Below are positions 27,240 through 58,617 of a stretch of DNA of 64,000 bases, piece after piece (within the stretch, counting starts at the first letter, position 1; each line of letters opens with the position of its first letter). The translations under genes and the position numbers were made by a program. Source of the DNA: Apostichopus japonicus (lineage: Eukaryota > Echinodermata > Holothuroidea > Aspidochirotida > Stichopodidae); NCBI RefSeq assembly GCF_037975245.1, contig NC_092575.1:28295341-28359340 (forward strand), in the 5' to 3' direction. The notes beneath the pieces were generated by a model. That model ran no database searches. It was not told the origin of the DNA and worked only from the letters and a program-made list of their open reading frames with translations.

Positions 27240-28849
27240 AGATTTTGTAGTCTTGTTAAAACTTTCATAAAACTTACTTAACCTTGAGATGCGTCAACAG
27301 GGAAAGTTATACATACCCTCTATAAAGCGATGCATTCCTTCAATGCAACTCAAAATTTCTCTTTTGTCCTTCACGCCTTTAATGAAACACCGTAGAATTA
27401 TTGGCACCACTAACAGAGTATTGGCCCTTCAGTTTATTTACTGTATATGATATGTCAACTGCTGTGTTGCTCCATTCAGTGATGACTTGCACTATAAATC
27501 TTCAACATGTTTTTTTTTTTGTGTCCAAGGCATTAATTGTTTTATTGAAGGGTTTTCTTATTTTTTTGTATTGTTACATTTTATGAGTAGCAGACATGTT
27601 GTTATTCTCTTACTTGATTTTTATACATTTCAATGCACTGCTTTAATGCATATACCGTTGTTTTTCAGCACTGTCCCATCAGTACTAGGGAAATGAGGTA
27701 TTTTATATTTGCTGTTTTCAAATTTATGTTTTTCTCTCTAGTCTTACCTGTCTTATTGAAAACATTCTTAAGGACAGATGCCATATTTAGTATGTTGATG
27801 TTTCACATTTAGTACAAGAAGCTTATTGTTGAGGTCAATGGTCATTTCAGGACAGCCTGTGTCATTGTGAATTTATTGTTTATCAAATCACACTGCCTTT
27901 CACTGCATTACTAAGATCAAGTATGTTGTACACCCTCACTATACATTTATCAGATTCATGACGAACCAGATCGTTACATCATCAAAACCACATCGCATTT
28001 TTAAATTCTGGTTTCCTTTTCTGGTATAATTATAGAAATTAACTAATAAATAATGTAACTGGTAAATTATTAATTACTTTTAAAAGAGGAACGAAATTTA
28101 TTACTTTTCAAATTAATCTTTTTTTTAACAAAATATGTAAATGCAATTCATGGGAATATAGTTTAAAGTAGTCCTACATTTCCATGATGTTAGAAAACTG
28201 GAGAAATGAAGTTGAAATTTAAGCCATTTTAATGCCAGCGTAGCAGGATATTCATATATTAAACGAAATAGCAATTTCCAGCAGATGGATACTAATGACT
28301 AAAACAGGATGTTCATTATAATTATCAACATTAATGCAAAGTTTATTTTAATATAAAAAGATTATGATTTATAGCTTAGCATTGCTTTTTTGTCACATTC
28401 AATCCATTATTTTGCAAAATCGGTGAAGGGTGAACGTTATAAAAGTATGTTAATGTTAAGGCCTTTGGTAAGCTGATTAGTAAAATGTAAAATTAGTTGA
28501 TGACAATCCTTCAGTGTGTTTCTCTTTGAGTTCTCTCTTTTTCAGCTATATTAAACAAACTACCCACCCCTCCTCCACCCATGGCTACTGGACTGTGATA
28601 AATATGTATCCATCAGGAGCACTCAGGAGTCCATCGACTACAATGCACTATATTATACTACAGTGCTATATACTATACTGCAATGCACTATACTATACTA
28701 CAGTCACTATATCCCCAAATATGCAAGAAAGTCAAATAATGGTCAAAGGCAAATTTGAAGAAGTATTCTATTGTTGACAAAGGTGATGCTCTGAGTAGAC
28801 GCTGACAATGATAAAACCGTTTCATTTACAATTAATATAAGGGCATAAT
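27240..28849 (+). other. Intergenic or intronic, no gene seen
   Basis: AT-rich. A small tandem of tactatactacagtgcacta-like units lies near 28640-28705. Nothing else recognised. Confidence 0.45.
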
Positions 28850-29705
28850 GGTACATATGTTTCTTTATCAATTAATATTAGATTTTTCAGGTCCAGGAAT
28901 TAGAAGGTCAGAAAGATACATATGTTTCTTTATCAATCAATATTACATTTCTTCAGGTCCAGGAATTAGAAGGTCAGAATGATACATCTGTTTCATTATC
29001 AATTAGTATTAGATTTCTTCTGGTCCAGGAATTAGAAAGTCAGAATGAAACATCTGTTTCATAATCAATCAATATTACATTTCTTCAGATCCAGGAATTA
29101 GAAGGTCAGAATGATACATCTGTTTTACATATTTTCAATCAATACTACATTTCTTCAGGTCCAGGAATTAGAATGTCAGAATGATACATCTGTTTCATGA
29201 TCAATCAATATTGGATTTCTTCCGGTCCAGGAATTAGAAGGTCAGAATGATACATCTGTTTTATTTATTTTCAATCAATGCTACATTTCTTCAGGTCCAG
29301 GAATTAGAATGTCAGAATGATACATCTGTTTCATGATCAATCAATATTGGATTTCTTCAAGTTCAGGAATTAGAATGTCAGAATGATACATCTGTTTCAT
29401 TCATTATCAATCAATATAAGATTTCTTCAGGTCCAGGAATTAGAAGGTCAGAATGATACATCTGTTTCATGATCAATCAATATTGGATTTCTTCAAGTCC
29501 AGGAATTAGAAGGTCAGAATGATACATCTGTTTTACATATTTTCAATCAATACTACATTTCTTCAGGTCCAGGAATTAGAATGTCAGAATGATACATCTG
29601 TTTCATGATCAATCAATATTGGATTTCTTCCGGTCCAGGAATTAGAAGGTCAGAATGATACATCTGTTTCATTATCAATCAATATAAAATTTCTTCAGGT
29701 CCCCT
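28850..29705. repeat. ~67-bp minisatellite with acceptor-like motif
   Basis: About 12 copies of a unit with ccaggaattagaaggtcag and gatacatctgtttcat. Nearly every copy contains atttcttcag followed by gtcc, which reads as a 3' splice site on the + strand. It lies between terminal exons A and B. Confidence 0.9.
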
Positions 29706-30907: not shown

Positions 30908-32046
30908 GTAAGTTTACTATTTGACGAGCAAATTCATACGATGCTTAATAGGGGGATAAAAATAAGTGTCCCCAAATCTCAAATTTTTGACTTTTTATCT
31001 CAATATTGTGACTTTTATCTCAAACATTTGACTTTCTATCTCAAAATTGTTCTTTCTATGTCCCTTTTAAGCCACCTTACATTCCCCTATGTACACTCAG
31101 TCTGGTCTGTTGACTTTGAGAGTTGTAGGAAATATACTGTTTTAAAACAGAATTATGAATTACATATTACCTGACTCTTCCCTATCTTTACAGCATTTGC
31201 TAATCTTTGTCTGGAAGACAATCCTTGTGACCAAGATTCAGCAGACTGCTACAGTCTTACAGATCGAGTGATCTGTGTTTGTAAGACCGGAATCAATAAA
31301 GAGTCCTGCATCGGACAAAATGAGAGTAAGTAGTATAAACCAACATGAGTTGCTCTGTCAAGCAGGGGGGCCGACACATGATGGTTAAATCACTTGGTAA
31401 AGTTGGTATTTTCACATATTTATCTAAATTTAAGAAACAAACTTAGCATTTTATTAGTTAAGCTTGTAGTAGAACTGGGAATTTTCCAAAAGAGCCCAGT
31501 AACGATTCAACTGACGATGGCACGAGTCAAGTTATGGGGAAAGTACCCTTTCCTTCCCCACAAAAATGAGTAGTTATTATAATAATAAACCTTTCATATA
31601 AACCTAGTATAGGCTCATTTTATCTGCAGCTACAATGCCCATTTCTTTTCATGGAGGCAACTCCCCCCATGGGTCTGTCCCTGACTAACATGGACTTTGG
31701 GACGTTGTAAGGATGTCCAACTGATGTATTGTGTAGGACTATTTGGTATTAATGTACATATACTCTGTTATTGTTAATTTGACGCCTTTAATAGTATTTT
31801 TGTTCATCTAAACAATGTTCTCTTTCACCTTGGTTTCCAGTGGGCAATGAAGTTGGCACCCTGGAGCTTATATTTGTACAAAACTGGTGGATTGGGGTCA
31901 TCTTCATCTCTGTAACACTTGTGGTCTTCATTCTGCTGGTCGGGATCATCTACTCCTGCCTCTGTAGGTGTTCTTATGGTGTCAGTAATGACATTGATCT
32001 CCCAACAGTGATACCAAATGGACATTCACATCCTAATAATGCATAA
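30794..32046 (+). CDS. Terminal exon set C: stalk, Cys-rich domain, transmembrane tail
   Basis: Three exons, 30794-30907, 31194-31325 and 31841-32046, all entered in phase 1 and therefore joinable to EGF exon 15. They encode a Ser/Thr-rich stalk, a six-Cys EGF-like unit, and a single transmembrane helix with a ~33-residue tail. They could be a third C-terminal form of the EGF gene or the 3' part of a separate related gene whose 5' exons were missed. Splicing to EGF exon 15 is inference. Confidence 0.68.
31194..31325 (+). CDS. Exon C2: diverged EGF-like domain
   Basis: Acceptor atctttacag, donor gtaagt, phase 1-1. Six cysteines: LCLEDNPC, DC, VICVC, SC. The usual glycine after C5 is retained (CKTGINKESC). 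Confidence 0.68.
31841..32046 (+). CDS. Exon C3: transmembrane helix and tail
   Basis: Acceptor tggtttccag, phase 1. Encodes NWWIGVIFISVTLVVFILL and more hydrophobic residues, a CLCRC juxtamembrane cluster (possible palmitoylation), then a tail ending HPNNA and TAA. The WWI start of the helix echoes exon A (WWIAII). The last codons and stop lie in the first unit of the downstream minisatellite. Confidence 0.72.
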
Positions 32047-32990
32047 TCATAGTAATGCATGACCTAATAATGCATGACCATAGTAATGCATGATCATAGT
32101 AGTGCATGACCATAGAAAGGCATGATCATAGCAATGCATGGTCATAGTCATGCATGATCATGATAATGCATGATCATAGTAATGCATGTTCATAAGAAAG
32201 CATGATCATAGCAATGCATGGTCATAGTCATGCATGATCATAGTAATGCATGATCATAATAATGCATGATCATAGCAATGCATGGTCATAGTCATGCATG
32301 ATCATAATGCATGATCGTAATGCATGCTAGTAATGCATGTTCGTAATAATGCATGATCATAGTAATGCATGTTCATATTAATGCATGATCATAATGCATG
32401 ACCTAATAATGCATGAACATAGTAATGCATGATCATAGTAGTGCATGACCATAGAAAGGCATGATCATAGCAATGCATGGTCATAGTCATGCATAATCAT
32501 GATAATGCATGATCATAGTAATGCATGTTCATAAGAAAGCATGATCATAGCAATGCATGGTCATAGTCATGCATGATCATAGTAATGCATGATCATAATA
32601 ATGCATGATCATAGTAATGCATGTTCATATTAATGCATGATCATAATGCATGATCATAATGCATGATCGTAATGCATGCTAGTAATGCATGTTCATAATA
32701 ATGCATGATCATAGTAATGCATGTTCATATCAATGCATGATCATAATGCATGACCATAGTAATGCATGACCATAGTAATGCATGACCATAGTAATGCATG
32801 ACCATAGTAATGCATGATCATAGCAATGCATGGTCATAGTCATGCATGATCATAGTAATGCATGATCATAATAATACATGATCATAGTAATGCATGTTCA
32901 TAAGAAAAGCATGATCATATTTATGCATGATCATAGTAATGCATGCTCATAATAATGCATGAGCATAGTATTGCATGCTCATAGTATTCA
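32027..32990. repeat. ~16-bp minisatellite with higher-order structure
   Basis: More than 50 units of the type gcatgatcatagtaat. A longer block is itself duplicated: the run with agtagtgcatgaccatag and gaaaggcatgatcatagc near 32095 recurs near 32435, a spacing of about 340 bp. It begins within the coding end of exon C3. Confidence 0.92.
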
Positions 32991-36440: not shown

Positions 36441-36555
36441 TCATCCGAAGAAACCATGTGGTGTGGATGAGTCATCAGTCTTACTCTCCAGTGTGAACGG
36501 AGGAATTCTGCAATCAAAGGTGAAGCCATCTGACCTCTCCATACGAAATGTACCC
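36441..36555 (-). CDS. POLDIP2: POLDIP2 exon 11 (last)
   Basis: Acceptor tttctttcag. Completes Trp298 with its first base, then GTFRMERSDGFTF, RIPPFTLES and a short divergent tail to TGA. It is the last strand segment of the ApaG fold. Confidence 0.93.
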
Positions 36556-39500
36556 CTGAAAGAAATAGACACAATTATTAGAAGCAGCATCAATCACACC
36601 TCAAATACAAATCTGAAAGTAACAGACACAACAGTTAACAGCAACATCAATGAACACCTCAAATACAAATCTGAAAGTAACAGACACAATAGTTAACAGC
36701 ATCATCAATCACACCTCAAACACAAATCTGAAAGTTACAGACACAATAGTTAACAGCATCATCAATGAACACCTCAAATACAAATCTGAAAGTAACAGAC
36801 ACAATAGTTAACAGCATCATCAATCACACCTCAAATACAAATCTGAAAGTAACAGACACAATAGTTAACAGCATCATCAATCACACCTCAAATACAAATC
36901 TGAAAGTAACAGACACAATAGTTAACAGCATCATCAATCACACCTCAAATACAAATCTGAAAGTAACAGACACAATAGTTAACAGCATCATCAATCACAC
37001 CTCAAATACAAATCTGAAAGTAACAGACACAATAGTTAACAGCATCATCAATCACACCTCAAATACAAATCTGAAAGTAACAGACACAATAGTTAACAGC
37101 ATCATCAATCACACCTCAAATACAAATCTGAAAGTAACAGACACAATAGTTAACAGCATCATCAATCACACCTCAAATACAAATCTGAAAGTAACAGACA
37201 CAATAGTTAACAGCATCATCAATCACACCTCAAATACAAATCTGAAAGTAACAGACACAATAGTTAACAGCATCATCAATCACACCTCAAATACAAGTCT
37301 GAAAGTAACAGACACAATAGTTAACAGCATCATCAATCACACCTCAAATACAAGTCTGAAAGTAACAGACACAATAGTTAACAGCATCATCAATCACACC
37401 TCAAATACAAATCTGAAAGTAACAGACACAATAGTTAACAGCATCATCAATCACAGCTCAAATACAAATCTGAAAGTAACAGACACAATAGTTAACAGCA
37501 TCATCAATCACACCTCAAATACAAATCTGAAAGTAACAGACACAATAGTTAACAGCATCATCAATCACAGCTCAAATACAAATCTGAAAGTAACAGACAC
37601 AATAGTTAACAGCATCATCAATCACACCTCAAATACAAATCTGAAAGTAACAGACACCATAGTGATGTGTCTTGTCTATCTATCTTACCACATGTGACCG
37701 CTGGGTGCTTGCAAAGAGACATGACTGCTGTACTGAAACGCAGGCTGGTCTTTGGATAGTATCGGCTCCTGAGAGAAACAACAGAAAATGGTATCATCAT
37801 AGTTTATCCAGAATTACATTGCAACATGTTATGCAAATGCTAGAGCAAAAGGTTCTCACCATCTCTAGAGTCCCTGAGAGACTGAATTACTTGTCATCAC
37901 TATAATCATTAAATCTATCACCCCATTAAGACATCTCACCTGTCCTACTACACCTCTTCCTCTCACTGTCTCTAATGTCTCTGAGAGACTGAATTACTTG
38001 TCATCAGTATAATCATTAATTACACCATCCATTAAGACATCTCACCTGTCCTACTACACCTCTTCCTCTCACTGTCTCTAGTGTCCCTGAGAGACTGCAT
38101 TACTTGTCATCAGTATCATCATTAATTACAACATCCCATTAAGACATCTCACCTGTCCTACTACACCTCTTCCTCTCACTGTCTCTTATGTCCCTGAGAG
38201 ACTGAATTACTTGCCATCAGTATCATCATGAATTACACCATCCTATTAAGACATCTCACCTGTCCTACTACACCCTCTTCCTCTCACTGTCTCTAATTTC
38301 CCTGAGAGACTGAATTACTTGTCATCAGTATAATCATTAATTACACCATCCCATTAAGACATCTCACCTGTCCTACTACACCTCTTCCTCTCACTGTCTC
38401 TAGTGTCCCTGAGAGACTGAATTACTTGTCATCAGTATAATCATTAATTACACCATCCATTAAGACATCTCACCTGTCCTACTACACCTCTTCCTCTCAC
38501 TGTCTCTAGTGTCCCTGAGAGACTGCATTACTTGTCATCAGTATCATCATTAATTACAACATCCCATTAAGACATCTCACCTGTCCTACTACACCTCTTC
38601 CTCTCACTGTCTCTTATGTCCCTGAGAGACTGAATTACTTGCCATCAGTATCATCATTAATTACACCATCCTATTAAGACATCTCACCTGTCCTACTACA
38701 CCCTCTTCCTATCACTGTCTCTAATTTCCCTGAGAGACTGAATTACTTGTCATCAGTATAATCATTAATTACACCATCCCATTAAGACATCTCACCTGTC
38801 CTACTACACCTCTTCCTCTCACTGTCTCTAGTGTCCCTGAGAGACTGAATTACTTGTCATCAGTATAATCATTAATTACACCATCCCATTAAGACATCTC
38901 ACCTGTCCTACTACACCCTCTTCCTCTCACTGTCTCTAGGGTCTCTGAGAGACTGAATTACTTGTCATCAGTATAATCATTAAATCTATCATCCCATTAA
39001 GACCTCTCACCTGTCCTACTACACCTCTTCCTCTCACTGTCTCTAGAGTCTCTGAGAGACTGAATTACTTGTCATCAGTATAATCATTAATTACACCATC
39101 CCATTAAGACATCTCACCTGTCCTACTACACCTCTTCCTCTCACTGTCTCTAGTGTCCCTGAGAGACTGAATATCCTCCAGTGTCTTTCTCTTAATTGCA
39201 CCGTCTCATCTCCAAGATTTTCCAACCTGATGCAATACCGCCACTGTCAACACAAAAACATTCATAAGGTTCACTTTATGTTTTGTCATGTAAATGAGAG
39301 TGTGGAAGTGGTTTCACTAAAGTCCGCCGCACACCCCCTGACTACCTAAAGTCCACCGCACACCCCTGACTACTTGACCTTTAATCTGAGAATTGTCGAT
39401 AGTCAGGCTATTGCCTCAGACTATGATTCATCAAGAGTTTGCAAGTTCTAAGTCACATTGGCTTCAGTCAGGGAAAACTGGACATGTAGTGTATTTTTCC

Positions 39501-42500
39501 CCTGGCAGAGAGCAGTTCACAACTAAAATGGCCCAGTTTAACAAATGTAACCAATCACAGGGTCATCAACTTGCATGCTACCTAAACGAGCTCCAGTCAT
39601 TAATAGCAAGCAGTGGTCGTATGTGCTATTACAGTTAGTCGTTAAGTGTGCGTGATCAGTTTTCAAGACAATCAAAAACTTGGTCAAAGTCGGTCAAGTT
39701 GATTTGAGTTGTGATCGGTCGGGCAGTGTGGGTTTGGCTTTTATAATGGAGCAAAGCAGGTCTGAAATGTAATTATTTAAATAATAATTTATTATAATTC
39801 ATAGAATTTGTCTATGGATGAGCTGTGCTGAATCCCACTGAGCCAGTAAATTATGCATTTTTCTATTTCTAACTTGCCTGCCATAAAAAATTGGCTCTAG
39901 TACATAAGTCTTTTGCCTATCCTTACATATTTTAGGCTATTAAGACAAAAGGGAAGGCAAAGAAACATATTACAGCTTTCTTTAGAAAAATGAACTCACC
40001 CAATAGACGCTGGACTCTTGAGAAACCTAAATAAATGTGCAGAAATCAGAAAAAAAGAAACATTGCACAAACATCAAGATAAACAATGGTTCATTCATCT
40101 AATTTCAGACAAGCCAAAACTCTATATGAGCATAAGCCAATGAAACAATTATTTCATAATACTTTCTGTAGTAATTCAAACAGAAATAGATCAAGTAATT
40201 CATCATACCAATAGTCTGCAATGTGTATTCTAAACTGACAGTTCAACATACTTATGGGCTGAGCTTCTTGGAGCTGAGATTCTTGGAACTGAGCTTCTTG
40301 GAGCTGAGAATCTTGGAACTGAGCTTCTTGGAGCTGAGCTTCTTGGATTAAGGCAATGCATATCTATTAATCATATTTTCATCAATGGCTTACTTAAATT
40401 GAAATCACCTAAAGGCATTCTTACCCGGGCACCCATGTAAAATGGAATCACAGTGACTCTTATATCTTCAGTGGTTTCTTTATGAACATCTGAGAGCTCC
40501 AGCCATGGATGGTTTTTCTCTTGCCAGGCACGGAGGGTGTCTCGGGGGGTGAAAGGCGGATCTGTGAAGTCAACAAGATCAAAACTTCAAAGACAAAAGC
40601 ATTCTTCTAACAGTTTCAATTATCCTTTTAACTTACACATTAACAAAACTACTTTTAATTATAAATTTAAGTTTTCACAAAACACCAAGCAAACCTCTTC
40701 TCACACAGTCGTACAATCATATGAATAATCAGTATCTTGTTCCTTCCATGTTGAGGCACAAAATGGAAATCTGTATATTAGCATGTGAATTCCACAACAT
40801 ATTCAATTCTAGAATAACTACAATCCTATTTCTGTTGGAGAATATTTGTCAAAGAAGTTCCTAACAAAAGGAAGTAACAAATCCCAGCAAAACAAATGTT
40901 GCAGAGCCATTACCTACAACAGCAGTTGACTCTGATTAAAAGTTTACATGCTATTCCATATAAACAGTCACATAACAATATCAAGAGATGAACTAACAAG
41001 TTACCTACAACAGCAGTTGACTCTGATTAAAAGTTTACATGCTATTCCATAAACACAGTCACATAACAATATCAAGAGATGAACTAACAAGTTACCTACA
41101 ACAGCAGTTGACTCTGATTAAAAGTTTACATGCTATTCCATAAACACAGTCACATAACAATATCAAGAGATGAACTAACAAGTTACCTACAACAGCAGTT
41201 GACTCTAATTAAAAGTTGACATGCTATTCCATAGAAATAGTCACATAACAATATCAAGAGATGAACTAACAAGTTACCTACAACAGCAGTTGACTCTAAT
41301 TAAAAGTTTACATGCTATTCCATAAACACGGTCACATAACAATATCAAGAGATGAACTAACAAGTTACCTACAACAGCAGTTGACTCTGATTAAAAGTTT
41401 ACATGCTATTCCATAAACACAGTCACATAACAATATAGTTACAGAGATTAAACTTAACAAGAGTCATTTCAAATAACAGAGTGGAGTTGAACAACTGGGA
41501 ATTATCAACTAAAATTTTACTGTTTTTAACTTAACATATGTTTATATAAATATATATATTATATTAATAATTAAACTAACTGATGTGAACAAGCAAGAAA
41601 CTGCTAGAAACCAATTGTATTAATTGATTACAGGCTCAATACCTTTCATTAAGAGGAGACCATCTTCATTAATTAATTGGTAACATGCTCATTAGTCATT
41701 ACCTTTCATGAGGAGGGGACAATCTTAATTAACTAATTAATTACATGCTCATTACCTTTCATTAGGATAGGACCATCTTAATTAATTAATTGATTATGTA
41801 CTCATTATCTTTCATTAGGAGGAGACCATCTTAATTAATTAATTGATTACATGCTCATTACCTTTCATTGGGAGGAGACCATCTCAATTAATTGATTACA
41901 TGCTCATTACCTTTCATGAGGAGGGGACCACCTTAATTAATTAATTGATTACATGCTCATTACCTTTCATTGGGAGGAGACCATCTCAATTAATTGATTA
42001 CATGCTCATTACCTTTCATGATGAGGAGACCATCTTAATTAATTAATTGATTATGTACTCATCACCTTTCATTAGGAGGAGACCATCTTAACTAATTAAT
42101 TGATTAGATGCTCATTACCTTTAATTGGGAGGAGACCATCTCAATTTATTGATTACATGCTCATTACCTTTCATGAGGAGGAGACCATCTTAATTAATTA
42201 ATTGATTACATGCTCAATACCTTTCATTAGGAGGAAACCATCTTAATTAATTAATGAATAACATGCTAATTACCTTTCACTTGGAGGAGACCATCTTAAT
42301 TAATTAATTGATTACATGATTATTACCTTTCCTTAGGAGGAGACCATCTTAATTAATTAATGGATAACATGCACATTACCTTTCTCTGAAATGGGATATA
42401 TCTTATTACCTTGTCCGGGATTATGCTCTAAGAATTTGTCAAACAATTCATGTTGTAGAGGTTGTTTTTCTGTGGTAGTGTAGGGTAGGACGTCTTCATG

Positions 42501-45500
42501 TGCCACATAGTCCAAACCTGTGAAGAGATCAGGATAACAAAGCTAAGTGTTAACAAACTGACTACAAATATGGTCACCCTGTATCCATACTTCACAAAAA
42601 GGAACAATTCACTGTAAATTCAAATTTTGGATTAAACAACCAGCAGTGTTGCATATTAACTGCTTGAATTGGCAAATCTTTCCCTGCATTAATTTACTTC
42701 ATAATGTAACTGCAGACCCAGTGCTAGAGATCTCTTTACAAGCATACACTGAAAGATTGATATCTTCCCAACACACACATATATCACTCACACACTTCTA
42801 GAAGGAACGAGCAAACATGGTAGCGTTCCATCCTACACATAAGTGGTACGCTTGGCTCCTTGTCCCTTTTAAACTTTACATCAACCTTTTGAGATAACTT
42901 GAGACTACCTATCTTAACATCTGTCTTCCTCAGTATGACCTATCTTAACAAGAGTTTAATTTTCACCTGGCAATAGATAAATATTCGCATAAATGATTCT
43001 ATAAGGCAGTTTGCTGACCTGGTATTGCATAGAGGGATCTATTGTTTAATTTTCACCTGGCAATAGATAAATATTCGCATAAATGATTCTATATGGCAGT
43101 TTGCTGACCTGGTATTGCATAGAGGGATCTATTGTTTAATTTTCACCTGGCAATAGATAAATATTCGCATAAATGATTCTATAAGGCAGTTTGCTGACCT
43201 GGTATTGCATAGAGGGATCTATTGTTTAATTTTCACCTGGCAATAGATAAATATTCGCATAAATGATTCTATAAGGCAGTTTGCTGACCTGGTATTGCAT
43301 AGAGGGATCTATTGTTTAATTTTCACCTGGCAATAAATAAATATTCGCATATATGATTCTATATGGCAGTTTGCTGACCTGGTATTGCATAGAGGGATCT
43401 ATTGTTTAATTTTCACCTGGCAATAAATAAATATTCACATAAATGATTCTATAAAGCAGTTTGCTGACCTGGTATTGCATAGAGGGATCTATTGTTTATT
43501 TTTCACCTGGCAATAAATAAATATTCACATAAATGATTCTATAAAGCAGTTTGCTGACCTGGTATTGCATAGAGGGATCTATTGTTCTCTTGGTTTCCTA
43601 AAAAGGTGACGGATTCTGTTTGTGCTCTCTGAAAAAAAGTAAGAAAATAAATGAAGGAAAACTAACATTATATTATTAAACCCACATCCATTGCAACTGG
43701 CATATAAGTATCAAAGCTGGTGACTGTTGAGAATTTAAGTACGCAGCTGTTAATCTACTGTATGCAGACAAATAGCTTATTTCTAGTTTGTTTGGCTGAA
43801 GTTACAGTACTATTTACCATACAGCCATCCATGTTATCAAATAAAATATGTTGAATTCCTCTTTAGAATCTAATATTCTACCCATTATACCAGAGAGATA
43901 ACATTTAAAACGTTTTACGTAAAAAATGCAAACAGACCGTCGCACTTGCTTTGCAGCTGTTAACATAAAAATGATTTTCTAATTCCATCAAAACTAGAGA
44001 AGACACTCACAATAAATGGACAATCCCTGGAGTCTATTAGTACTTGATAGTATACATGTGTTTTGCCTTTAACTTCTTTGTTGCTAGCATGGATGTGCTC
44101 GCTCTCTGTCTCTGGGGGTCTGCAAAATAAAACATAAACAATTAGATTAGGATTAACATATCAGGGAAGCAAAATTAGGACAAGGTGAAATCAAAGGTTT
44201 GTGAGAGAAAGGATGAGAGACAAGGACAAGCTACATTTCAACGACTGCAACACAAAACCAAGGTATGTACGAAAGGCAATCCTAGAGACTGAGACATTAG
44301 AAGTTGGTGGAGACCCATACTGGGAGGCTGCCCCAGGTAAAGCTGAAAATCCTGCCAGTAAAGCTGAAGGTTAGTACGAAAGGCAATCCTAGAGACTGAG
44401 ACATTAGAAGTTGGTGGAGACCCATACTGGGAGGCTGCCCCAGGTAAAGCTGAAAATCCTGCCAGTAAAGCTGAAGGTTAGTACAAAGGCAATCCTAGAG
44501 ACTGAGACATTAGACGTTGGTGGAGACCCATACTGGGAGGCTCCCCCCAGGTAAAGCTGAAAATCCTGCCAGTAAAGCTGAAGGTTAGTACAAAGGCAAA
44601 CCTACAGGCTGAGACATTAGACATTGGTGGAGACCCATACTGGGAGGCTGCCCCAGGTAAAGCTGAAAATCCTGCCAGTAAAGCTGAAGGTTAGTACAAA
44701 GGCAATCCTAGAGACTGAGACATTAGACGTTGGTGGAGACCCATACTGGGAGGCTCCCCCCAGGTAAAGCTGAAAATCCTGCCAGTAAAGCTGAAGGTTA
44801 GTACAAAGGCAAACCTACAGACTGAGACATTCGACGTTGGTGGAGACCCATACTGGTAGGCTCCCCCCAGGTAAAGCTGAAAATCCTGCCAGTAAAGCCG
44901 AAGGTTAGTACAAAGGCAAACCTACTGTACAGGCTGAGACATTAGACGTTGGTGGAGACCCATACTGGGAGGCTGCCCCCAGGTAAAGCTGAAAATACTG
45001 CCAGTAAAGCAGAAGGTAAGTACAAAAGGCAATCCTAGAGACTGAGACATTCGACGTTGGTGGAGACCCATACTGGAAGGCTCCCACCCCAGGTAAAGCT
45101 GAAAATCCTGCCAGTAAGGCCAAAGGTTAGTACAAAGGCAAACCTACAGACTGAGACATTAGACGTTGGTGGAGACCCATACTGGGAGGCTCCCCCCCCC
45201 CCAGGTAAAGCTGAAAATCCTGCCAGTAAAGCTGAAGGTTAGTACAAAGGCAAACCTACAGACTGAGACATTAGATGTTGGTGGAGACCCATACTGGGAG
45301 GCTGCACCAAGACACAGCTGAAAATCCTGCCAGTAAAGCACTTTCAAGTATTGTGGCATCCTTGCTACATAAATATCATATGTTGTATAGCGAAATGATA
45401 ACAACTAACAAGAGACTGAAATGCATAAATACCTTTCTTGTTTGTTACCGGCTATGTCTCTATCATACAGTCTTGCCAACCAGGGAAACAGTAAGATACC

Positions 45501-47506: not shown

Positions 47507-49200
47507 TTTGCTTACTTGGTGTTTTGAAGTTAACAGCCAGCTCAGAAAGTATTCTCCACCGAGTTTGCACCTTGCCACAAAACTTACATCGAACGCCAAT
47601 TGCTACTGTAAATTTGTGAAGGGAACCAGGAGTGAAATGCACGAAGGTTAGTCGGCAAAATTCAATTTCATAGACGTAAGTTTGGAGATTTCATTGAAGG
47701 AGACACAAACTCAAGAACCATAATTGGCTTATATGATTGGGATTATTTCAGTGACAATGCAATCTCAAAACTGATGAAAAGGTTTGTCTGTAGGCTGACA
47801 ATTTATAAGAATGTGATGTCCTAGTGCCACTATGATCAAAACCATTTAACCATCTCTTTTTTTCGTTTTACATTATCAAGATAGAATGTTACCAGTGTTG
47901 ACTATAAAATCAAAGTGTATTATTCAGCATTTTCAAAATTCAGTCCCTATAGAAATAAACATTGTTATAAATAAAACCATAGCAAACTGAAGCCCATGTG
48001 GCAGGTTGATATATTTAGACTAGTTCAAGTCCAACTTTGTGTGCGAGGGACAATTAGTTTAGTTTACCCAAGTAATTCCTAAGATTAAGGAAGCCAACAG
48101 AAGCTCACATGATTGAAACCCTATCTATGTGATCATGGAGAAATAATCTATAGAATCTGACAAATTTCAGTAATGACAAATGAGAACAATGAGAGAGAGA
48201 AATACAAGTTTCGAGGATTCTGATATAGGGTGAAACCAGAGAGGATGGAAAGTTTCATTTGCTTACAGGTCCATTCGTCAAATCTGCACCATATTAATCC
48301 CGTTTCATTCCATTGGTAGCCTGCACAACTCGGTCTATAGATAACCACCCCTGTAGGTTGTGTTATTACAGCCCCCCCCCCCACCACAAGAACACATTGT
48401 CATAACTGATAAAGTACTGCACTCTTTTACAAATTAAAGCATGCTGTGAAATATTGAGGACAGAATGTTCAATTTCTTCTGTCTGTGTATCCTACTTTCT
48501 AGTTCAACATATTGTACAATAGCAGAGTGATTCAAGAAAAGAAAATATAGACAAAATTGACATTTCTTTTGTGTATTTATAACATTGAATGTTCAGAGAT
48601 GACCTAACAATTAAAAACAACATAATGAAAATTATAGTAATACCCACTGAGGCAAGAATAAAACATCATTCTTAAATTCACTTCAAGTATCGCTTCCATA
48701 ATCCTAACGCAAAAAAAGCAAAAAATGGCTGAATGATGGACAGCATCTTGAAGTGGAATCATTGGTCCCAAATTATCATAAAAACAACAATTAGCTACCA
48801 TCAATCCTTTCACATCTGGATCCTCAACCTCCCATCCAAAGCATCTCTCAGGGGTTATCATTATCTCCCTTCACAATAACTTTGATTTAATTTAATTTAA
48901 AACTCACAGTAAATGGTAGAATAATATATTACCTTACAATTCATTTTGTATTATTTAGTATATATAGACTTATTATTTAATATGCATAACTTAACCAAAC
49001 ATTTGCTGATGATATTATTGACAAATTACCTAGCATGATGAAAGTTGATAAGTTAAAGCTCCACAAATTGCAAAAAAAAACAACACAAAAGTGATGAAAA
49101 TAACTTGCTCAATGAAACATTGTTGAGTTGGTATAGTTCTACCTTTGTTAGTTCTATAAACAGGAAAAGTACAAAATTCTTGAAGTTTCTCATTCATACC
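47507..49200. other. Intergenic, POLDIP2 promoter side
   Basis: 2.7 kb separate the POLDIP2 start from the TMEM199 stop. I see no TATA box or other gene here. Confidence 0.4.
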
Positions 49201-49204
49201 ATAG

Positions 49205-49985
49205 CATAGCTTCACATGGATATAGCCCTCACTCACACCGTTGTATGGATACCCATGGATATAATAGCCCTCACTAACATCATAGCATAGCTACACATGG
49301 ACATAGCTCTCACTCACACCGTAGAATAGATACCCATGGATATAGCCCTCACTCACATCATATAGATACCCATGGATATAGCCCTCACTCACATAATAGT
49401 ATCGATACCCATGGATATAGCCCTCACTCACACCTTAGAATAGATACCCATGGATATAGCCCTCACTCACATCATACTATAGATACCCATGGATATAGCC
49501 CTTTCTCACATTATACTATAGATGCCCATAGATATACAGTAGCCCTCTCTCACACCGTAGAATAGATACCCATGGATATAGTCCTCACTCACACCGTAGA
49601 ATAGATACCCATGGATATAGCCCTCACTCACACCGTAGAATAGATACCCATGGATATAGCCCTCTCTCACATTATACTATAGATGCCCATGGATATAGCC
49701 CTCACTCACATCATAGCATAGATACCCATGGATATAGCCCTACACTCACATAATAGTATCAATACCCATGGATATAGCCCTCACTCACATAATAGTATAT
49801 ATGCCCATGGATATAGCCCTCACTCACATCATAGCATAGCTACACATGGAAATAACCCTCACTCACACCTTAGAATAGATACCCATGGATATAGCCCTCT
49901 CTCACATCATAGTATGGATGCCCATGGATATAGCCCTCATTCACACCATAGCATAGGTACAGTATATATCCATGGATACAGCTCT
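49205..49985. repeat. ~40-bp minisatellite 3' of TMEM199
   Basis: About 19 copies of a unit with tagatacccatggatatagc and cctcactcaca. It may lie in the TMEM199 3' UTR. The 120-codon + strand frame here (repeated HSHNS-like peptides) is a repeat artefact. Confidence 0.9.
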
Positions 49986-50237: not shown

Positions 50238-50315
50238 TCATACTTCTGTCTTCACAATAAAGTAAAGGTCAGCTGCAGCCGTTATTAATGTTAGAAACAG
50301 TCCAATCATTACTCT
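50238..50315 (-). CDS. TMEM199: TMEM199 exon 6 (last)
   Basis: Acceptor tttttatttag. Encodes RVMIGLFLTLITAAADLYFI then VKTEV and TGA: the second transmembrane helix. Confidence 0.9.
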   Translation of the reverse strand, partial: RVMIGLFLTLITAAADLYFIVKTEV

Positions 50316-53300
50316 CTAAATAAAAATAGATAGAAAATTGAAAATTAATTTAAGTGGAGAATTTGTAGTTCATCATCAGTACTATAACCATTTTGTGTTG
50401 GAAAATAGACACACAGTGTAACTTTACTTTATGCATGACATGGCATGGGACACTAATACAGACTCTCAAAGTCTCAAGAGATACAACACATCTGTGGAGA
50501 CACTCATGCAGACTATCTAGAGATAGACACATCTCTTGGGACAGTAATACACTCTCTAGACTTTTAGAGATAGAACACATCTGTTGGGACACTAATATAG
50601 ACTATCTAGAGATATAACACATCTGTTGGGACACTGATACACTCACTAGCTATATAACACATCTGTTGGGACACAAATGCAGACTATCTAGAGATAGACA
50701 CATCTCTTGGGACAGTAATACACTCTCTAGACTTTTAGAGATAGAACACATCTGTTGGGACACTAATATAGACTATCTAGAGATATAACACATCTGTTGG
50801 GACACTAATACAGACTCTCTAGATATATACCACATCTGTTGGGACACTAATACAGACTCTCTAGAGATATAACACATCTCTTGGGACAGTAATACACTCT
50901 CTAGACTTTTAAAGATAGAACACATCTGTTGGGACACTAATATAGACTATCTAGAGATATAACACATCTGTTGGGACACTAATACAGACTCTTTAGATAT
51001 ATAACACATCTGTTGGGACACTAATACAGACTCTCTAGAGATATAACACATCTCTTGGGACAGTAATACACTCTCTAGACTTTTAGAGATAGAACACATC
51101 TGTTGGGACACTAATATAGACTATCTAGAGCTATAACACATCTGTTGGGACACTAATACAGACTCTTTAGATATATAACACATCTGTTGGGACACTAATA
51201 CAGACTCTCTAGAGATATAACACATCTCTTGGGACAGTAATACACTCTCTAGACTTTTAGAGATAGAACACATCTGTTGGGACACTAATATAGACTATCT
51301 AGAGATATAACACATCTGTTGGGACACTAATACAGACTCTTTAGATATATAACACATCTGTTGGGACACTAATACAGACTCTCTAGAGATATAACACATC
51401 TCTTGGGACAGTAACACACTCTCTAGACTTTTAGAGATAGAACACATCTGTTGGGACACTAATATAGACTATCTAGAGATATAACACATCTGTTGGGACA
51501 CTAATACAGACTCTTTAGATATATAACACATCTGTTGGGACACTAATACAGACTCTCTAGAGATATAACACATCTCTTGGGACAGTAATACACTCTCTAG
51601 ACTTTTAGAGATAGAACACATCTGTTGGGACACTAATATAGACTATCTAGAGATATAACACATCTGTTGGGACACTAATACAGACTCTCTAGAGATATAA
51701 CACATCTCTTGGGACAGTAATACACTCTCTAGACTTTTAGAGATAGAACACATCTGTTGGGACACTAATATAGACTATCTAGAGATATAACACATCTGTT
51801 GGGACACTAATACAGACTCTTTAGATATATAACACATCTGTTGGGACACTAATACAGACTCTCTAGAGATATAACACATCTCTTGGGACAGTAATACACT
51901 CTCTAGACTTTTAGAGATAGAACACATCTGTTGGGACACTAATATAGACTATCTAGAGATATAACACATCTGTTGGGACACTAATACAGACTCTCTAGAG
52001 ATATAACACATCTCTTGGGACAGTAATACACTCTCTAGACTTTTAGAGATAGAACACATCTGTTGGGACACTAATATAGACTATCTAGAGATATAACACA
52101 TCTGCTGGGACACTAATACAGACTCTTTAGATATATAACACATCTGTTGGGACACTAATACAGACTCTCTAGAGATATAACACATCTCTTGGGACAGTTA
52201 TACTCTCTAGAAATATAACACATCCGCTGGGACACATCTGTTGGAGCACCTATGCAACAAAACTTAAATAAAAATTTGTGCCTATAATAATTAGTGTGAT
52301 GGGTGGTAATACCTCACAAACACAGCTTTCTGCTTTACATGTATGTGCAGTAGTGTGTACTATTCCTAATTCGGATATTATTTAGTAAAAGCTTAAATAA
52401 TTGATCATTCAAATTCCCTTAAAACTGAGTAAAAGTCATGATTGTGCCATGCTCTTCCTACCTTTAGAAATTAATTTCTAACATGATAACAGAGTAGGAG
52501 GGGAAAAATATTATGACAAATATTTTAGATTTAACATTGTTTGGTAAGTTGTCACTGATTTCTTTTTGTGACACAAGGAGTGAGCAACAGTTGACTTACT
52601 GTGGGAATGGACTGCCCAGCATAGTATGCGGCCATGTATCCAAAAGTGAAAGAACCAACCAAAGTAAGAATAAAGTTGAGCATTCCCATTAGCTGTTTCT
52701 TCACAGACCTCACTAAAGGAACAGAAAGAATAATAGAAATTAATTTCTTATGACCACAATGCCAAGATGAATCGAGGTTTGTTGTCATGTGATGTATCAA
52801 GGTGAAGCTACAGGGTCTCAACTCATAACAAAATATGATTTCCTGTCCGACGAACCACAAAGTGTGAATTAACTCATACTGTACATAGTAGAGCTAGTGA
52901 AATATGACATTTTTAAGTTCAATTGGTGAATATTTCTTCCACCACTTTCATTCTTTCTTTAATATATTATATAGCTCTTGGCTTTTTGAAATGATTTAAA
53001 GATGTGAGTGAACACTGACTTATGACTTAGAACTTATGATTTAATGTGTCACATTTGAAAAGTACCACCTCACCTTCTCTTCCAAATCCTTCAAAGGCAT
53101 GTTTTCCAGCAACCTAAAAGCACAAAAGAAAAATGTTTGGATAAGAGATTAATCTTGAACAATATACATTTCATGGTAATTAAAGAACTTAGAGAATTAC
53201 AGAACTTATAATAAATTTACTCCTAGAATACTAGCATAGAGGTAAAGGATATTGAAACTATACAATTCTAACAATTCACCTTCTTATTGTACCATTATTT

Positions 53301-56300
53301 AGCACCACTAGGTATTCAAATGGTAAATCTTATTTCAAAGATGGTTTGAAGGTCCCCCCCCCAACTTGTTACCAGAAAAAAAACAAAATCTTAAACATTG
53401 ATTTTCCCAATTTACCACTTTGAATGTCCTGCAAAGTTTTAAGCACATGGTTTATAGATGATCCTTGCCTCAGGGCAAAGGATCTAAAGGGATCAATTGT
53501 TTTGTTTCACCTTGATACTTGCTGTGGGAGACTGTAAATAACACACTGGTCATCCTGGGGAAGAGGGGATGGGACGGAATGGGGAGGAAATGGGGAGGTG
53601 ATGGGGATTGGGAGGGGATGGGAGGGGATGGGGAGAGGATGGGGAGGGAGCAGGGTGGGGAGAACTATATGTATTATATATGTCTGAAGTGCAACAGAAA
53701 GGAACTCTCAATTGTATAAATATTGCATTACTCATGATTGTGTAACTTTGACACAGTGATCACATACAGTAGGTCCCTTGAAAATATGGACACTGTGATT
53801 CAAACATAGTCAAGTGTGTATAACTAGTATACTGTATAACTGTTGGAAATGTGATGGCATTTTGAGCATAGTTAGTAAATTTGAGATCACCAAAGTCCAC
53901 TTGAATGCCAACAATATTGCCCTCAAATCACACAGTACTACTGTAGCATACTAACAGAATTCAAAGAAATCATTTGAAGATGTCTCAAACCTCCAAATTA
54001 GTCCCACAATCATGTTGATGATAAAGAACCACTTATGAGTTTAAAATCCTCTCAAATACGGCAATCAACAAAGTCTGCAAGTCTGACCATTATCTAGCAG
54101 ATTTGTCAGCCATACAGATGACCTTTAACAGTGGATATCTGGTCACACCTTGCACGGTAAACCGGTTTTAGTACCGAAACCGGTTTTTTCCGACCGAATT
54201 TCGGTACTATTTTTTATTTTAAGAAAACCGAAAAACCGAAAAAACCGGAAAAACCGAAATGTGAATTGCAAATACTGGAAAAAAATCAAAGTTTGTTGCC
54301 TTTGGTTTCTCTTATTTACTGTTCTTTTTGCAACATGAAAGTAAATTGCAACAAGAGAAAGCTTTTCTGATAGACGACATTGTCAGCTACGATAGGCACA
54401 CGCCATAACCAGTGCTTGAGGGTGGATAGCTAGGCCTAACATTAGGCTATGCAGCCCTAATATGCGTGCATCAGTTAGGTGACCTTGTAGTATTGAACTG
54501 ACCTTGGTTGCCAACGTTAGTAGTTGTGAGAAGTACACACTCAAACGACGAGATGCAGTTCAAAATAAATTGTTATATCCAACGTGTTTGTCCTCTTTGT
54601 GTTATTCTTATTATTTAACCTCAATTTAACAGTAGAGGTTATGGAGAAAATCTTTTCAAACACAATGATCACAGTTCGTGTTCAAAAAATGAACGTTAAA
54701 ACTTGAAAGGTACATTGCGCAATCCACAATACCATACGACATGTACAGTCGCAGGGGGGGGGGGCTCTGAGTTTAACAACTAAGATGCAACAAGTAACAT
54801 TAGATCAATCACGGGGGGGGGCTCTGAGTTTAACAACTAAGACGCAACAAATAACATTAGAACAATCACGGGGGGGGGGGGGCTCTGAGTTTAACAACTA
54901 AGATGCAACAAGTAACATCAGAACAATCACAGTCCATTGTTCACAAGAGACACCTGGCGTCAGGCTTGAGCAAGGAAAATTAAAGGAGTAAAAATGTTGC
55001 ATACATGGCTGGAAATTACAGATGTTGCTGTTGGGACAATTCTTCTTGTACGCTAATAGATTTTATTTTCTTTGTAAGTTTCCTTTAAACATTTCTTCTT
55101 ATCAGTTTTCAGACAAGGCGTCTCTCAGTTGGTTTTTCGTTTACGTTGATGAACACATGTTTCCAACTTAAACGTTAACAATTTATTTTCTTTACCGACC
55201 TAATCCCGCTTTTGCCAGCGATATTTTTCAACTTGTACTTGAAAGTGTAGACGGTAAATTCTCTTCACTCCTTGAAGAGAAATTTATTTTACCGCCAAGA
55301 TACCACCCGCGAACATGGCTAGAGCCTCGTGCAATTTGGTACCTTCGAACACTTTGTCAGCCACTACTGAATGAATATATTGGACCAATCACATTGTAAA
55401 GTTTGTTTTTACGATCTCCAATTGGTCATAATGGGGTTTACGCTCGGCCCTCATCTCCGAAAATATAACATATAATATAATATAACATGACCGTGATATT
55501 TTTTTCTGAACACGAATTTGAACTTCGTGAAGTACAGTAAACACAAGACAAACGATACGTGTACGTGATGTTTAAACTTTAAGAAAAAAAATCACTAACA
55601 TTTCTTTTCAACATATTTACTTTAATGTTTAGTTAACGTGGGTTATAAAATGAGAGTCATGAAGGCAGTAACATTTCTTGAATGTATTCTCCTTATTTTT
55701 AACCCTTCACTGCGAACGAACAGACTTGAACCCGCTGTTGGTAAAGCTTCAAAAATACGCATCTTAGCGATCGAGATTTGGACGTTTTCAATACAATTCG
55801 GGAGGGGAAAAAAAACCGGTTTTTGAGCCAGATTCGGTTTTTTGCTAGAGAAAAACCGGTTTTAAGTTTTCACGAAACCGTGCAAGCTTACACATACCTC
55901 TTGTTGGACATTATTAGTCATTTCATTGTACTGCTTATTATCTTGCTCTCTCTTCAACCTTTCAAGTCTGGCTAACAGCTCAGGATTCTAAAGAAATGGG
56001 TCAGAAATGACAAAACTTGATGGCAACTGACAATGACAAATTTGATTAATAATTATACAATATTAACTTCAAATAGCATTTATCATATCATTTATCAAGG
56101 AGTGTTAGCTCAGCGGTTAATGCCAGTGCCTTCCAATCATAAGGTCCCCAGTTCAAGTCACTCCAAGATTAATGTATGTCGTCCAGTTACAGAGTTGTTG
56201 ATCATTGACAATTCATAATCATGGACGTTAAAATATGAATCTAAGAGACTGACTTCGGTCAGCTTACGGCTTTGATAAGCCATGATGCTTCTTCCCGATT

Positions 56301-58617
56301 TCCTGCTTGCGGGAGGATCTAAAATACATATATACATATATGCAAGTCACCATGTTGTATTAAAAGGGTGCAAGTAATGCATTTATCAATATGTAAATTA
56401 TTGTGAGGTAATAAAATGGCACCTCAAACTTGAATTGCACAATTCCATTTAATTCCACTTCTGCAGAGCTCTACCTTCAATATTAAAAATTTGCAACAGT
56501 TTAAATCTTGTAAAATACATATCATGGTTATAAATGATATTAAAGTACATGTCATATCTAACCAAGTTAAGTGTCTTTTGGAGAAGGGATATTAATTTAC
56601 AAAATTTAATCACCTTTTGCCCCCTTTGTTTTTGGTTTCAAATAAAATTCAAGCCAAGTCAAAAAGATTATGAAATTTGATCTTCATTTCTGAATTAGGT
56701 GGAAGTATTCCAAACAAGTTTGCACAACAACAAACAGGTTTTCATGGATTGATAAAGTTGCCCATCAACTAACTCTGATGTTAAGCAATAAGTTAGCCAC
56801 ATTGGGTTGGCAAGGCAAAGTTGCAAGCAATCTTGACCACAAAATAAATTGCTAGCATATTATACCAAAATTAACCAAACAACAGCTATGTCAAATTTCA
56901 TGTTAGTCCGATGTTTTTTTGAACAACAAGCAGCACTAATAGTCTGTTATAATGATGATACAAGTATTTTTACAGATCTCATTATTTATTTTTAAGGTTA
57001 CTAACAGATGATTGTGACATTATTTTGTGAAACGAAGAAGTACATCACTAGACTTGAAGGGATCATATACTTTACACTTGGGGAGGGGGGGGGGGGGGTG
57101 TGGGGGTCTGGTTGAAAATGAAATATGAAATTTAGAGATGAAATGCAACCAGATGAAGTTTCATGAAAAGATGGATACATCAGTACTGTATATCTGCACT
57201 CACTCTCTCTGGCTCCTTCTGAGGTGGAAAATAAATTTCACATCCTTCTAAAAATTCATGAAAGTACAGCTTTTCTTCTGAGGAGAAAAGTTAAACCTAT
57301 CATCAGTTAATACAAAGTTACGATTGTTTCTGTTACCACAGCAATGCTTTAAATTGAAAGTGTTTGAGAATTGATAGTTTTGGGCAGTGCATCTCATTCC
57401 TTAATCTTTGGATTACCTAATCTCTTTAGTTCTTTTGGCTAGACCTGGAGTATCAAACGAGATCTGGACTAGGCTATATAAAGTGCTTTCAAATGATTGA
57501 CCAAATTATCCTTTTTGTCATCTGGTGGCAAAACTTCTTACATTCTTTTCTGACAATTATCCACTCCTTTTGTTACATCAACCATCATCCAAGAACAAAC
57601 ATATAAGCAGTACCATTTGTTTTTTTCCTTTTTATCTGTGATGAACTCGTTGAAAAAACAACAAATGTTATATATATATACTACATATGCCTAGCAGGCC
57701 TGCAACTAGTACTACTAGACCAGGGTTGTCCAACCTACGGCCCGCGGGCCACAGTCCGGCCCGCCGCATGGTTGCGTCCGGCCCGCCAGAGATGCTTCTA
57801 TACGGTGCGAAATTTTAGTGAGCAGATTTATTGATAACAATTTGAAGCTAGATAATCAATCATTCGAACCTTCTGGGTCCAAAAAAACTGCATACATGTC
57901 AGTTTGTGTGACACTCTCAGCGGGGGGGGGGGGCGGTGGTGGGCGGCTGGACTTTATTCATCTGTTTTATCAGGAAGGAAAATAAATCAGTGCGCTCCGC
58001 GCGCAGTGCTCACATTTTGTTGCCTTGGGCTTCGGGCAAAAAAATCGAAAAATCGAGCACAGGGTTCATGCGGCCCCTCTTTCATCATAATTATTCCATG
58101 TGGCCCTCCTCTGCGAAAGGTTGGACAACCCTGTACTAGACTGAGTGTGTTCGACATTACAAAACACATTTAATATCAAAGCTACATGCTTTTAAGATCA
58201 CTATTTTCAAAACATTTTGGAAAACTCCACGTTGGCACTCGATTTTAGTTGGTTTTTTTCGCGAGGCGGGGTAGACTACAATTGCTCCAATATCAAAGCA
58301 AGCACAGAGAATTAATCGAGTTAACTGTAACAACTGATATTCAAGTTATGAGTCATACTCATGTGTAGTTGTACAGTCAGTGCCAATAAACCTGCTAGTT
58401 TCGCGAAGATCTCACCTTTGGTAGAATCTGCAGACGACTGAGTGAAGTCATAAACTTCTTTGACAACATGATATGGAAGACTGACACATTTCTTGGACAC
58501 AGCATCGTTCCTATGAGATCTTAGCTCTCTCTTCAAGCCTTCTGGAGCTTCTTTGGATTTTAAAACACGGTCAATATTCTCAATGACGAAGGGAGAAATT
58601 TTCAAGGTGGTCGCCAT
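50238..58617 (-). CDS. TMEM199: TMEM199 homologue (Vma12-like V-ATPase assembly factor), 6 exons
   Basis: Exons in gene order: 58416-58617, 57204-57277, 55898-55987, 53074-53113, 52600-52712 and 50238-50315. They join in frame to 198 residues plus stop (human 208). Diagnostic blocks: EEKLYFHEFLEGCEIYFPP (human SKLYLHELLEGSEIYLP), NPELLARLERLKREQDNKQY (human [20 protein letters not shown]), then VRSVKKQLMGMLNFI. Two transmembrane helices at about residues 143-165 and 175-194 form the C-terminal hairpin; the N-terminal ~135 residues are cytosolic. The family, homologous to yeast Vma12, acts in the ER-Golgi with CCDC115 in assembling the V-ATPase Vo sector. The start has accaccttg-type sequence in reverse, i.e. 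gcgaccATG.GCG on the coding side is not exact, but it is the only upstream-compatible ATG. Confidence 0.93.
50400..52250. repeat. ~44-bp satellite with higher-order units in TMEM199 intron 5
   Basis: About 42 monomers of the type acatctgttgggacactaat. Monomer variants recur in a fixed order (ctcttgggacag, then gacttttagagatagaac, then atagactatctagag, then gactctttagatatata), giving higher-order units of about 175 bp, with some of about 132 bp that lack one monomer. Copies of the higher-order unit are almost identical. Confidence 0.95.
52600..52712 (-). CDS. TMEM199: TMEM199 exon 5
   Basis: Acceptor gttcctttag, donor gtaagt. Encodes RSVKKQLMGMLNFILTLVGS then FTFGYMAAYYAGQSIPT: the first transmembrane helix. 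Confidence 0.93.
53074..53113 (-). CDS. TMEM199: TMEM199 exon 4 (40 nt)
   Basis: Acceptor tgcttttag, donor gtgagg. Encodes VAGKHAFEGFGRE in frame with both neighbours. Confidence 0.85.
53553..53662 (+). repeat. G-rich tract, quadruplex-capable
   Basis: Many GGGG runs separated by 2-6 nt (ggggatggga, ggggaggaaatggggagg) on the strand opposite TMEM199, within its intron 3. Confidence 0.7.
54149..55886. mobile_element. Inverted-repeat element in TMEM199 intron 3
   Basis: Ends are cttgcacggt (left) and accgtgcaag (right), followed inward by repeated accggtttt/aaaaccggt motifs on both sides. The interior includes three ~55-65 bp direct repeats with G-runs and ctctgagtttaacaactaag (54757-54925). 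No transposase and no clear target duplication. The right end is 11 nt from the exon 3 donor. Confidence 0.7.
55898..55987 (-). CDS. TMEM199: TMEM199 exon 3
   Basis: Acceptor atttctttag, donor gtatgt, phase 0-0. Encodes NPELLARLERLKREQDNKQY then NEMTNNVQQE. Confidence 0.93.
56099..56330 (+). mobile_element. tRNA-derived SINE
   Basis: The head folds like a tRNA: ggagtgt (56099-56105) pairs with tcactcc (56158-56164). A-box-like ttagctcagcggttaatgc and B-box-like cagttcaagtca are present. A non-tRNA body with ctgacttcggtcagcttacg and cttgcgggagg follows. It lies in TMEM199 intron 2, opposite strand. Not called a functional tRNA: the T-arm is diverged and there is an attached body. Confidence 0.75.
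57204..57277 (-). CDS. TMEM199: TMEM199 exon 2
   Basis: Acceptor ttctcctcag, donor gtgagt. Encodes EKLYFHEFLEGCEIYFPPQK then EPER, the family signature. Confidence 0.94.
57721..58133. mobile_element. hAT-type non-autonomous element
   Basis: Ends CAGGGTTGTCCAACCT and, in reverse complement at the right, CAGGGTTGTCCAACCT. Flanked by an exact 8-bp duplication TACTAGAC (57713-57720 and 58134-58141). The interior starts with cggcccgcgggcc as in Charlie-like hAT elements. 413 bp, no transposase. In TMEM199 intron 1. Confidence 0.93.
58416..58617 (-). CDS. TMEM199: TMEM199 exon 1
   Basis: 67 codons from ATG at 58617 to donor gtgaga. Encodes MATTLKISPFVIENIDRVLK and continues to FTQSSADSTK. It is the least conserved part of the protein, as in vertebrates. 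Confidence 0.88.

What the first reader, a model, noticed from the sequence alone, without database searches (positions are those of the whole stretch)
37853..39243. Exon 9 of POLDIP2: its 3' end and splice donor amplified 13-fold
The intron 9 minisatellite unit (~106 bp) is the last 56 nt of exon 9, its 5' splice site (GGACAG, gtgaga) and ~45 nt of intron. Twelve near-identical exon-end/donor copies therefore follow the real one. In frame, reading past the true donor meets TAA after eight codons (GTG AGA TGT CTT AAT GGG ATG GTG TAA), so use of any downstream decoy would give a premature stop upstream of later junctions, a likely NMD substrate. The splicing machinery must pick the first of 13 almost equal donors. 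Coding repeats in introns are known, but a junction-spanning minisatellite of this kind in a conserved gene is not something I can name a precedent for.
Basis: partly seen in the sequence, partly recalled or inferred. Interest (0 to 1): 0.82.

Follow-up and report, generated by a model that had tools for sequence, protein, structure and literature searches.

The report
Minisatellite copying an exon-end splice site
In a sea cucumber gene, a stretch of DNA holding the end of an exon and its splice signal has been copied about a dozen times into the next intron; this kind of repeat was already described in lancelets, but here it turns up in several genes of an echinoderm.

Summary
The genome is very probably Apostichopus japonicus (PacBio HiFi assembly). 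POLDIP2 lies on the - strand; exon 9 is 39243-39118. Its last 55 nt, its donor and about 52 nt of intron recur every 106-108 bp: 12 identical donors (GTAGTAGGACAG|GTGAGA), the real one and 11 decoys, plus a truncated 13th copy ending ATG|GTGAGA. Use of any full decoy would meet TAA after eight codons.

"No precedent" does not hold: such arrays are "mirages" in lancelet genes, and a human minisatellite with multiple splice donors is in print.

Added here: the same gene has a second donor array (exon 5, 7 donors) and an acceptor array (last intron, 20 acceptors). Elsewhere, 7 of 104 sampled exon matches have a same-strand copy nearby (6 if one with about 10 true exon letters is dropped); inverted, 0 of 104. 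Arrays crossing one exon edge are about as frequent as random placement gives (5 of 49; 7.6 expected); arrays covering a whole exon match are missing (0; 5.3 expected). I read this as neutral tandem duplication, hidden because splicing uses the outermost site. No RNA was examined.

The parts
39118..39243 (-). POLDIP2 exon 9 (126 nt), ends in phase 0, authentic donor GGACAG|gtgaga (first intron base 39117)
   Evidence: phmmer to POLDIP2 structures 6zlx/6z9c; tblastn with recalled human POLDIP2; joined exons 2-11 read open in one frame
37854..39172 (-). Junction-spanning minisatellite: 12 full units of 106-108 bp (real exon end/donor + 11 decoys) and a truncated 13th
   Evidence: TRF, donor list, unit alignment
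37854..37886 (-). Truncated 13th copy (FSLSGTLEMVR) with donor-like ATG|GTGAGA
42954..43586 (-). Second donor-side array: 90-bp unit with about the last 28 nt of exon 5 and donor ACCAG|gtcagc, 7 donors (1 real + 6 decoys)
43559..43628 (-). POLDIP2 exon 5 (70 nt; its 5' boundary is less sure than the 3' one)
36556..37663 (-). Acceptor-side array: 57-bp unit with TGTGTCTGTTACTTTCAG; 19 decoy acceptors upstream of the real one at 36556; 98% of the last intron; no exon letters matched
36441..36555 (-). POLDIP2 last coding exon (exon 11 if one upstream exon is assumed), ends with TGA

Best explanation
This is a 'mirage' minisatellite. A tandem duplication had one break about 55 nt inside exon 9 and the other about 52 nt inside intron 9; slippage or unequal exchange then grew it, most recently by copying a four-unit block. 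The outermost (5'-most) exon end stays the real one. The spliceosome takes its donor, which is transcribed first and closes a 126-nt exon, so the other copies are removed as intron. Any full decoy that is used puts a stop codon 24 nt after the true junction and 80-1151 nt before the decoy junction, a likely NMD substrate. The array is nearly neutral and has no function of its own. Shown: anatomy, identity of the donors, in-frame stops, lack of coding constraint in the decoys, several other cases in the genome. Inferred: donor choice, NMD, mutational mechanism, neutrality.
For: 12 full units with identical donors and 106-108 bp spacing. In the decoys, 7 exon columns differ from the real copy by substitution, 5 of them at second codon positions, and 3 units have an extra G. 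Stops after a decoy: 11 of 11 here, 6 of 6 in exon 5, 19 of 19 at the last acceptor. Same-strand copies near other exons: 7 of 104 exon matches by the rule (6 if C17 is dropped, where only about 10 true exon letters are copied), inverted 0 of 104. Random placement: arrays crossing one edge 5 of 49 (expected 7.6, P=0.20 for as few), whole-match arrays 0 (expected 5.3, P=0.001). In lancelets RT-PCR suggested that mirages do not disturb splicing (PMC3087553).
Against: No RNA was examined, so some transcripts may use decoys. The 21-column invariant stretch at the donor could hint at constraint, though shuffles give as long a run in 14% of cases. The last-intron array puts 19 decoy acceptors before the real one, which a simple first-AG rule would not easily tolerate. 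The genome sample uses domain matches from three protein families, not annotated exons, and several of its cases are single duplications.
Confidence: 0.85

Rival explanations
1. The decoys act: a fraction of transcripts use downstream donors, each gives a premature stop and NMD, and copy number tunes the amount of POLDIP2.
For: The 12 full donors are identical and each of the 11 full decoys leads to a stop, so leak would lower output.
Against: Stops soon after a donor are expected by chance in intron sequence. The donor is not significantly better conserved than the rest of the unit. In the sample, arrays cross exon edges about as often as random placement gives. Lancelet mirages were reported not to disturb splicing (PMC3087553, PMC3902484).
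Confidence: 0.08
2. As the 1995 title says of an interferon-induced human transcript, the copies provide alternative donors that add sequence to the mRNA.
For: Same layout: a minisatellite offering many donors (title of Turri et al. 1995 in reference lists; the gene name IFI6/6-16 is recalled).
Against: Each full decoy meets a stop after eight codons, and units of 107 bp would not keep the frame.
Confidence: 0.04
3. Assembly artefact: the array is inflated or created by misassembly.
For: Tandem arrays are hard to assemble; one mirage in the lancelet draft was found aberrantly assembled (PMC3087553).
Against: The matching assembly is built from PacBio HiFi reads averaging 14.7 kb (PMC10344927), far longer than the 1.3-kb array. 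Similar arrays recur at other exons. Reads themselves were not examined; the near-identical four-unit blocks are where an error would be easiest.
Confidence: 0.03

Closest known systems
Lancelet 'mirage' minisatellites (Adh3, globins BflGb6 and BflGb9, troponin C, PGBD5)
   Same: Tandem repeats whose unit spans an exon-intron boundary and often carries the splice signal; donor and acceptor sides occur; units of 10-160 bp (passages of PMC3087553, and PMC3902484)
   Different: Other phylum (echinoderm); more copies here (12-13 donors, 7 donors, 20 acceptors) than the 3 and 6 reported for two BflGb6 haplotypes; three arrays in one gene; splicing and polymorphism not tested here
Minisatellite with multiple splice donor sites in a human interferon-induced transcript (Turri et al. 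1995; IFI6/6-16 by recall)
   Same: A minisatellite that offers many donors
   Different: Only the title was seen (full text not held). By recall its short repeats are used alternatively; here use of a full decoy would stop translation
Internal tandem repeats at exon-intron boundaries of human segmental-duplication genes (PMC2812944)
   Same: Minisatellites at exon edges that can change intron definition (passages)
   Different: There, variable repeats in recent paralogs, half of them in coding sequence, may form new introns; here the extra copies lie in an existing intron of a conserved gene

Membership tests
mirage minisatellite | Tandem array with minisatellite-size unit | tested here: met
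   107 bp x 12.3, 93% matches
mirage minisatellite | Unit spans an exon-intron boundary including the splice signal | tested here: met
   About 55 nt of exon 9 + GTGAGA donor in 12 full units
mirage minisatellite | Real boundary lies at the edge of the array | tested here: met
   By protein homology and open joined frame; not by RNA
mirage minisatellite | Normal splicing undisturbed | not testable with these tools
   No transcript data at hand
mirage minisatellite | Length polymorphism, germline or somatic | not testable with these tools
   One assembly held; near-identical four-unit blocks (units 4-7 and 8-11) suggest recent growth
multiple-donor minisatellite (Turri et al. 1995) | Several copies used as donors in mRNA | not testable with these tools
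   No transcript data; the stops after all 11 full decoys speak against coding use

The most novel reading that the evidence does not exclude
A few percent of exons in the A. japonicus genome may carry such decoy arrays, and leak to decoys, each ending in a stop, could make the output of POLDIP2 and other genes depend on unstable array length: a copy-number dial acting through splicing and NMD.
Probability: 0.07. Interest if true: 0.75.

Novelty: new member of a known kind. Interest (0 to 1): 0.4.

Why it matters
It carries splice-junction minisatellites, described in lancelets, into an echinoderm and gives a first rough frequency (6-7 of 104 exon matches). Identical donors in series are a natural test of whether splicing takes the first donor made, and of how introns grow: introns 9 and 10 of this gene are 94% and 98% tandem repeat.

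Tried and rejected
Dispersed repeat or mobile element: no sign of it, a 215-bp piece of the array matched only this array in G000 (6 matches, lower bound). Selection on decoy donors: the invariant run at the donor is not significant (P about 0.14). Special targeting of junctions: not supported in the sample, junction arrays are not in excess (5 of 49, expected 7.6). Other arrays of the window: 44260-45339, 41619-42384 and 40910-41436 lie in POLDIP2 introns, and no exon +-40 nt matched them at E <= 1e-3; 50472-52235 lies in what looks like a TMEM199 intron away from its exons, and 49189-49960 past the likely TMEM199 end (by eye).

Sample details: searches list 57 + 126 places. 85 had 200 nt of flank on both sides. 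All 19 AAA places were used; that search scored only 19 of 154 candidates. The rule (E <= 1e-5, at least 12 nt of the exon match, within 1.5 kb) was fixed after seeing and applied to the AAA set in the same script. At E <= 1e-3, 12 of 85 had some hit; of the 6 that fail the later rule, 2 have no exonic letters, 1 lies over 4 kb away and 3 are weaker. Domain matches can run past the true splice site: at C17:161699-161932 the donor appears to be CTG|GTAAGT inside the match, so only about 10 true exon letters are in the unit and a strict count would be 6 of 104 (by eye). This array is also one of the 5 junction arrays. Of the 7, three are single duplications (C16:12359222, C16:12356799, C21:16415230); in the first and third the copy has lost the donor (by eye). 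Random placement used TRF arrays of score >= 80, period >= 15 and >= 1.8 copies, and overlap of at least 10 nt.

Mitochondrial gene-order script: failed and was not repeated; the order was judged.

Literature: that I saw no report of junction arrays in echinoderms rests on searches of an open-access library only. A sea urchin Sp185/333 paper on short tandem repeats (PMC5103432) appeared in the listing and was not read. The lancelet Adh3 paper was not read; it is known through PMC3087553 and PMC3902484.

Full report
What was checked. The window lies at G000:C15:28295341-28359340 of a 671.58-Mb genome in 35 contigs. The 16,099-bp contig C35 is mitochondrial: its COX1 frame reads TGA 11 times, nad4L and cox2 follow cox1 (read by eye), and the large rRNA lies at the contig's end on the same strand as cox1. 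I recall this order for sea urchins and sea cucumbers. The published Apostichopus japonicus assembly has 671.60 Mb, 34 scaffolds, chromosomes of 18.21-46.02 Mb and PacBio HiFi reads of mean 14.7 kb (PMC10344927, passages). 34 scaffolds plus a mitochondrion give 35 contigs, and contigs C23 and C16 here have 18.20 and 46.04 Mb. I take the species as A. japonicus; the name comes from this agreement, not from a label.

The gene. The peptide at 39246-39091 (-) matches POLDIP2 (structures 6zlx, 6z9c; E about 1e-20). tblastn with a recalled human POLDIP2 places exons from 45857 to 36453 on the - strand. With splice sites set at consensus by eye, ten exons (called 2-11, assuming one unseen first exon) join into a single open frame ending in TGA. 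At the exon 4/5 join the frame lacks residues found in my recalled human sequence, so that boundary is less sure.

The array. TRF reports 37854-39172, 107 bp, 12.3 copies, 93% matches. Twelve units share GTAGTAGGACAG|GTGAGA exactly, 106-108 bp apart. Units 4 and 8 equal the real copy over the aligned unit; units 4-7 repeat almost unchanged as 8-11 (98-100%), so the array probably grew recently by a four-unit step. The last copy is cut short and keeps ATG|GTGAGA. In the decoys, seven exon columns differ from the real copy by substitution, five at second codon positions, and three units have an extra G in the coding part, so the copies are not held as coding sequence. The invariant stretch around the donor is 21 columns, but shuffles reach that in about 14%, so there is no good sign that decoy donors are kept by selection. 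A full decoy donor would lengthen exon 9 from 126 to 233-1304 nt and place a stop 80-1151 nt before the new junction.

More of the same in this gene. Exon 5 ends inside a 90-bp array with 7 identical donors; its 6 decoys each give a stop 70-520 nt before the junction. The last intron is a 57-bp array with 20 acceptors, 19 upstream of the real one. All 19 begin with A and turn the split codon TG|G into TGA. The decoys have 0 or 1 mismatch to the 18-letter motif, the real acceptor 2. That array shares no detectable exon letters, so it is an acceptor-side relative, not a full junction copy. Six arrays make up 58% of the 9,420-nt span from exon 2 to the stop, 94% of intron 9 and 98% of intron 10.

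Elsewhere in the genome. I sampled exons of chaperonin (PF00118), kinesin (PF00225) and AAA (PF00004) genes. By a fixed rule a same-strand copy of part of the exon match lies within 1.5 kb in 6 of 85 chaperonin and kinesin matches and 1 of 19 AAA matches; inverted copies are found in 0 of 104. The clearest are on C21, at two exon matches about 1 kb apart: a 46-bp array with 11 exact donors GAG|GTATGT and a 121-bp array with 7 exact donors AAG|GTATCA, real ones counted. On C17, 31-bp units carry a different, probably weaker site than the real one (CTG|GTAAGT once, CTGGTAGTA 24 times). There the domain match runs past the donor and only about 10 true exon letters are copied, so a strict count is 6 of 104. 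Three of the seven are single duplications: two on C16 (one on the acceptor side) and C21:16415230. In the donor-side two the copied donor is lost. The AAA case is on the acceptor side, three copies counting the real one.

Are junctions targeted? In the 220 kb sampled, 49 arrays were placed at random 5,000 times. Arrays crossing one edge of an exon match: 5 seen, 7.6 expected (P=0.20 for as few). Arrays covering a whole match: 0 seen, 5.3 expected (P=0.001). So there is no excess at junctions; arrays that would multiply a whole exon are missing, while those that copy one exon edge are tolerated about as often as chance gives. This is what one expects if splicing takes the outermost site. Exon extents are domain matches and the loci were chosen around exons, so the numbers are rough.

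What is known. Tandem duplications of exon-intron boundaries are 'mirages' in lancelets, on donor and acceptor sides, with RT-PCR suggesting undisturbed splicing, and were proposed as a source of new introns (PMC3087553, passages). The lancelet PGBD5 paper reports 60- and 108-bp repeats over splice sites and cites Adh and troponin C (PMC3902484, passages). Human tandem repeats at exon edges are treated in PMC2812944 (passages). Turri et al. 1995 describe a minisatellite giving multiple splice donors (title only). I saw no report for echinoderms in searches of this open-access library.

Verdict. It belongs to a known kind; the new points are the phylum, the number of arrays in one gene and a first rough frequency. 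How splicing treats the decoys is inferred, and transcript data would settle it.

Noticed in passing
50238-58659 (-): Pieces matching TMEM199 lie upstream of POLDIP2 on the same strand; the two genes are also neighbours in human (recalled).
   Followed up: partly
50472-52235, 49189-49960, 32037-32986, 28839-29702: Further long minisatellites (TRF periods 174, 39, 16 and 66); the first lies in a likely TMEM199 intron and does not touch an exon by eye.
   Followed up: partly
G000:C29:14745-31219: Five partial COX1 matches outside the mitochondrial contig, possibly a nuclear or duplicate mitochondrial fragment.
   Followed up: no
G000:C5:20157100-20157149: A 50-nt piece over a chaperonin exon edge recurs (88%) more than 4 kb upstream at 20152768-20152817.
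   Followed up: no
36556-37663: In the last intron the 19 decoy acceptors have 0 (17) or 1 (2) mismatch to the 18-letter motif, while the real acceptor has 2.
   Followed up: partly
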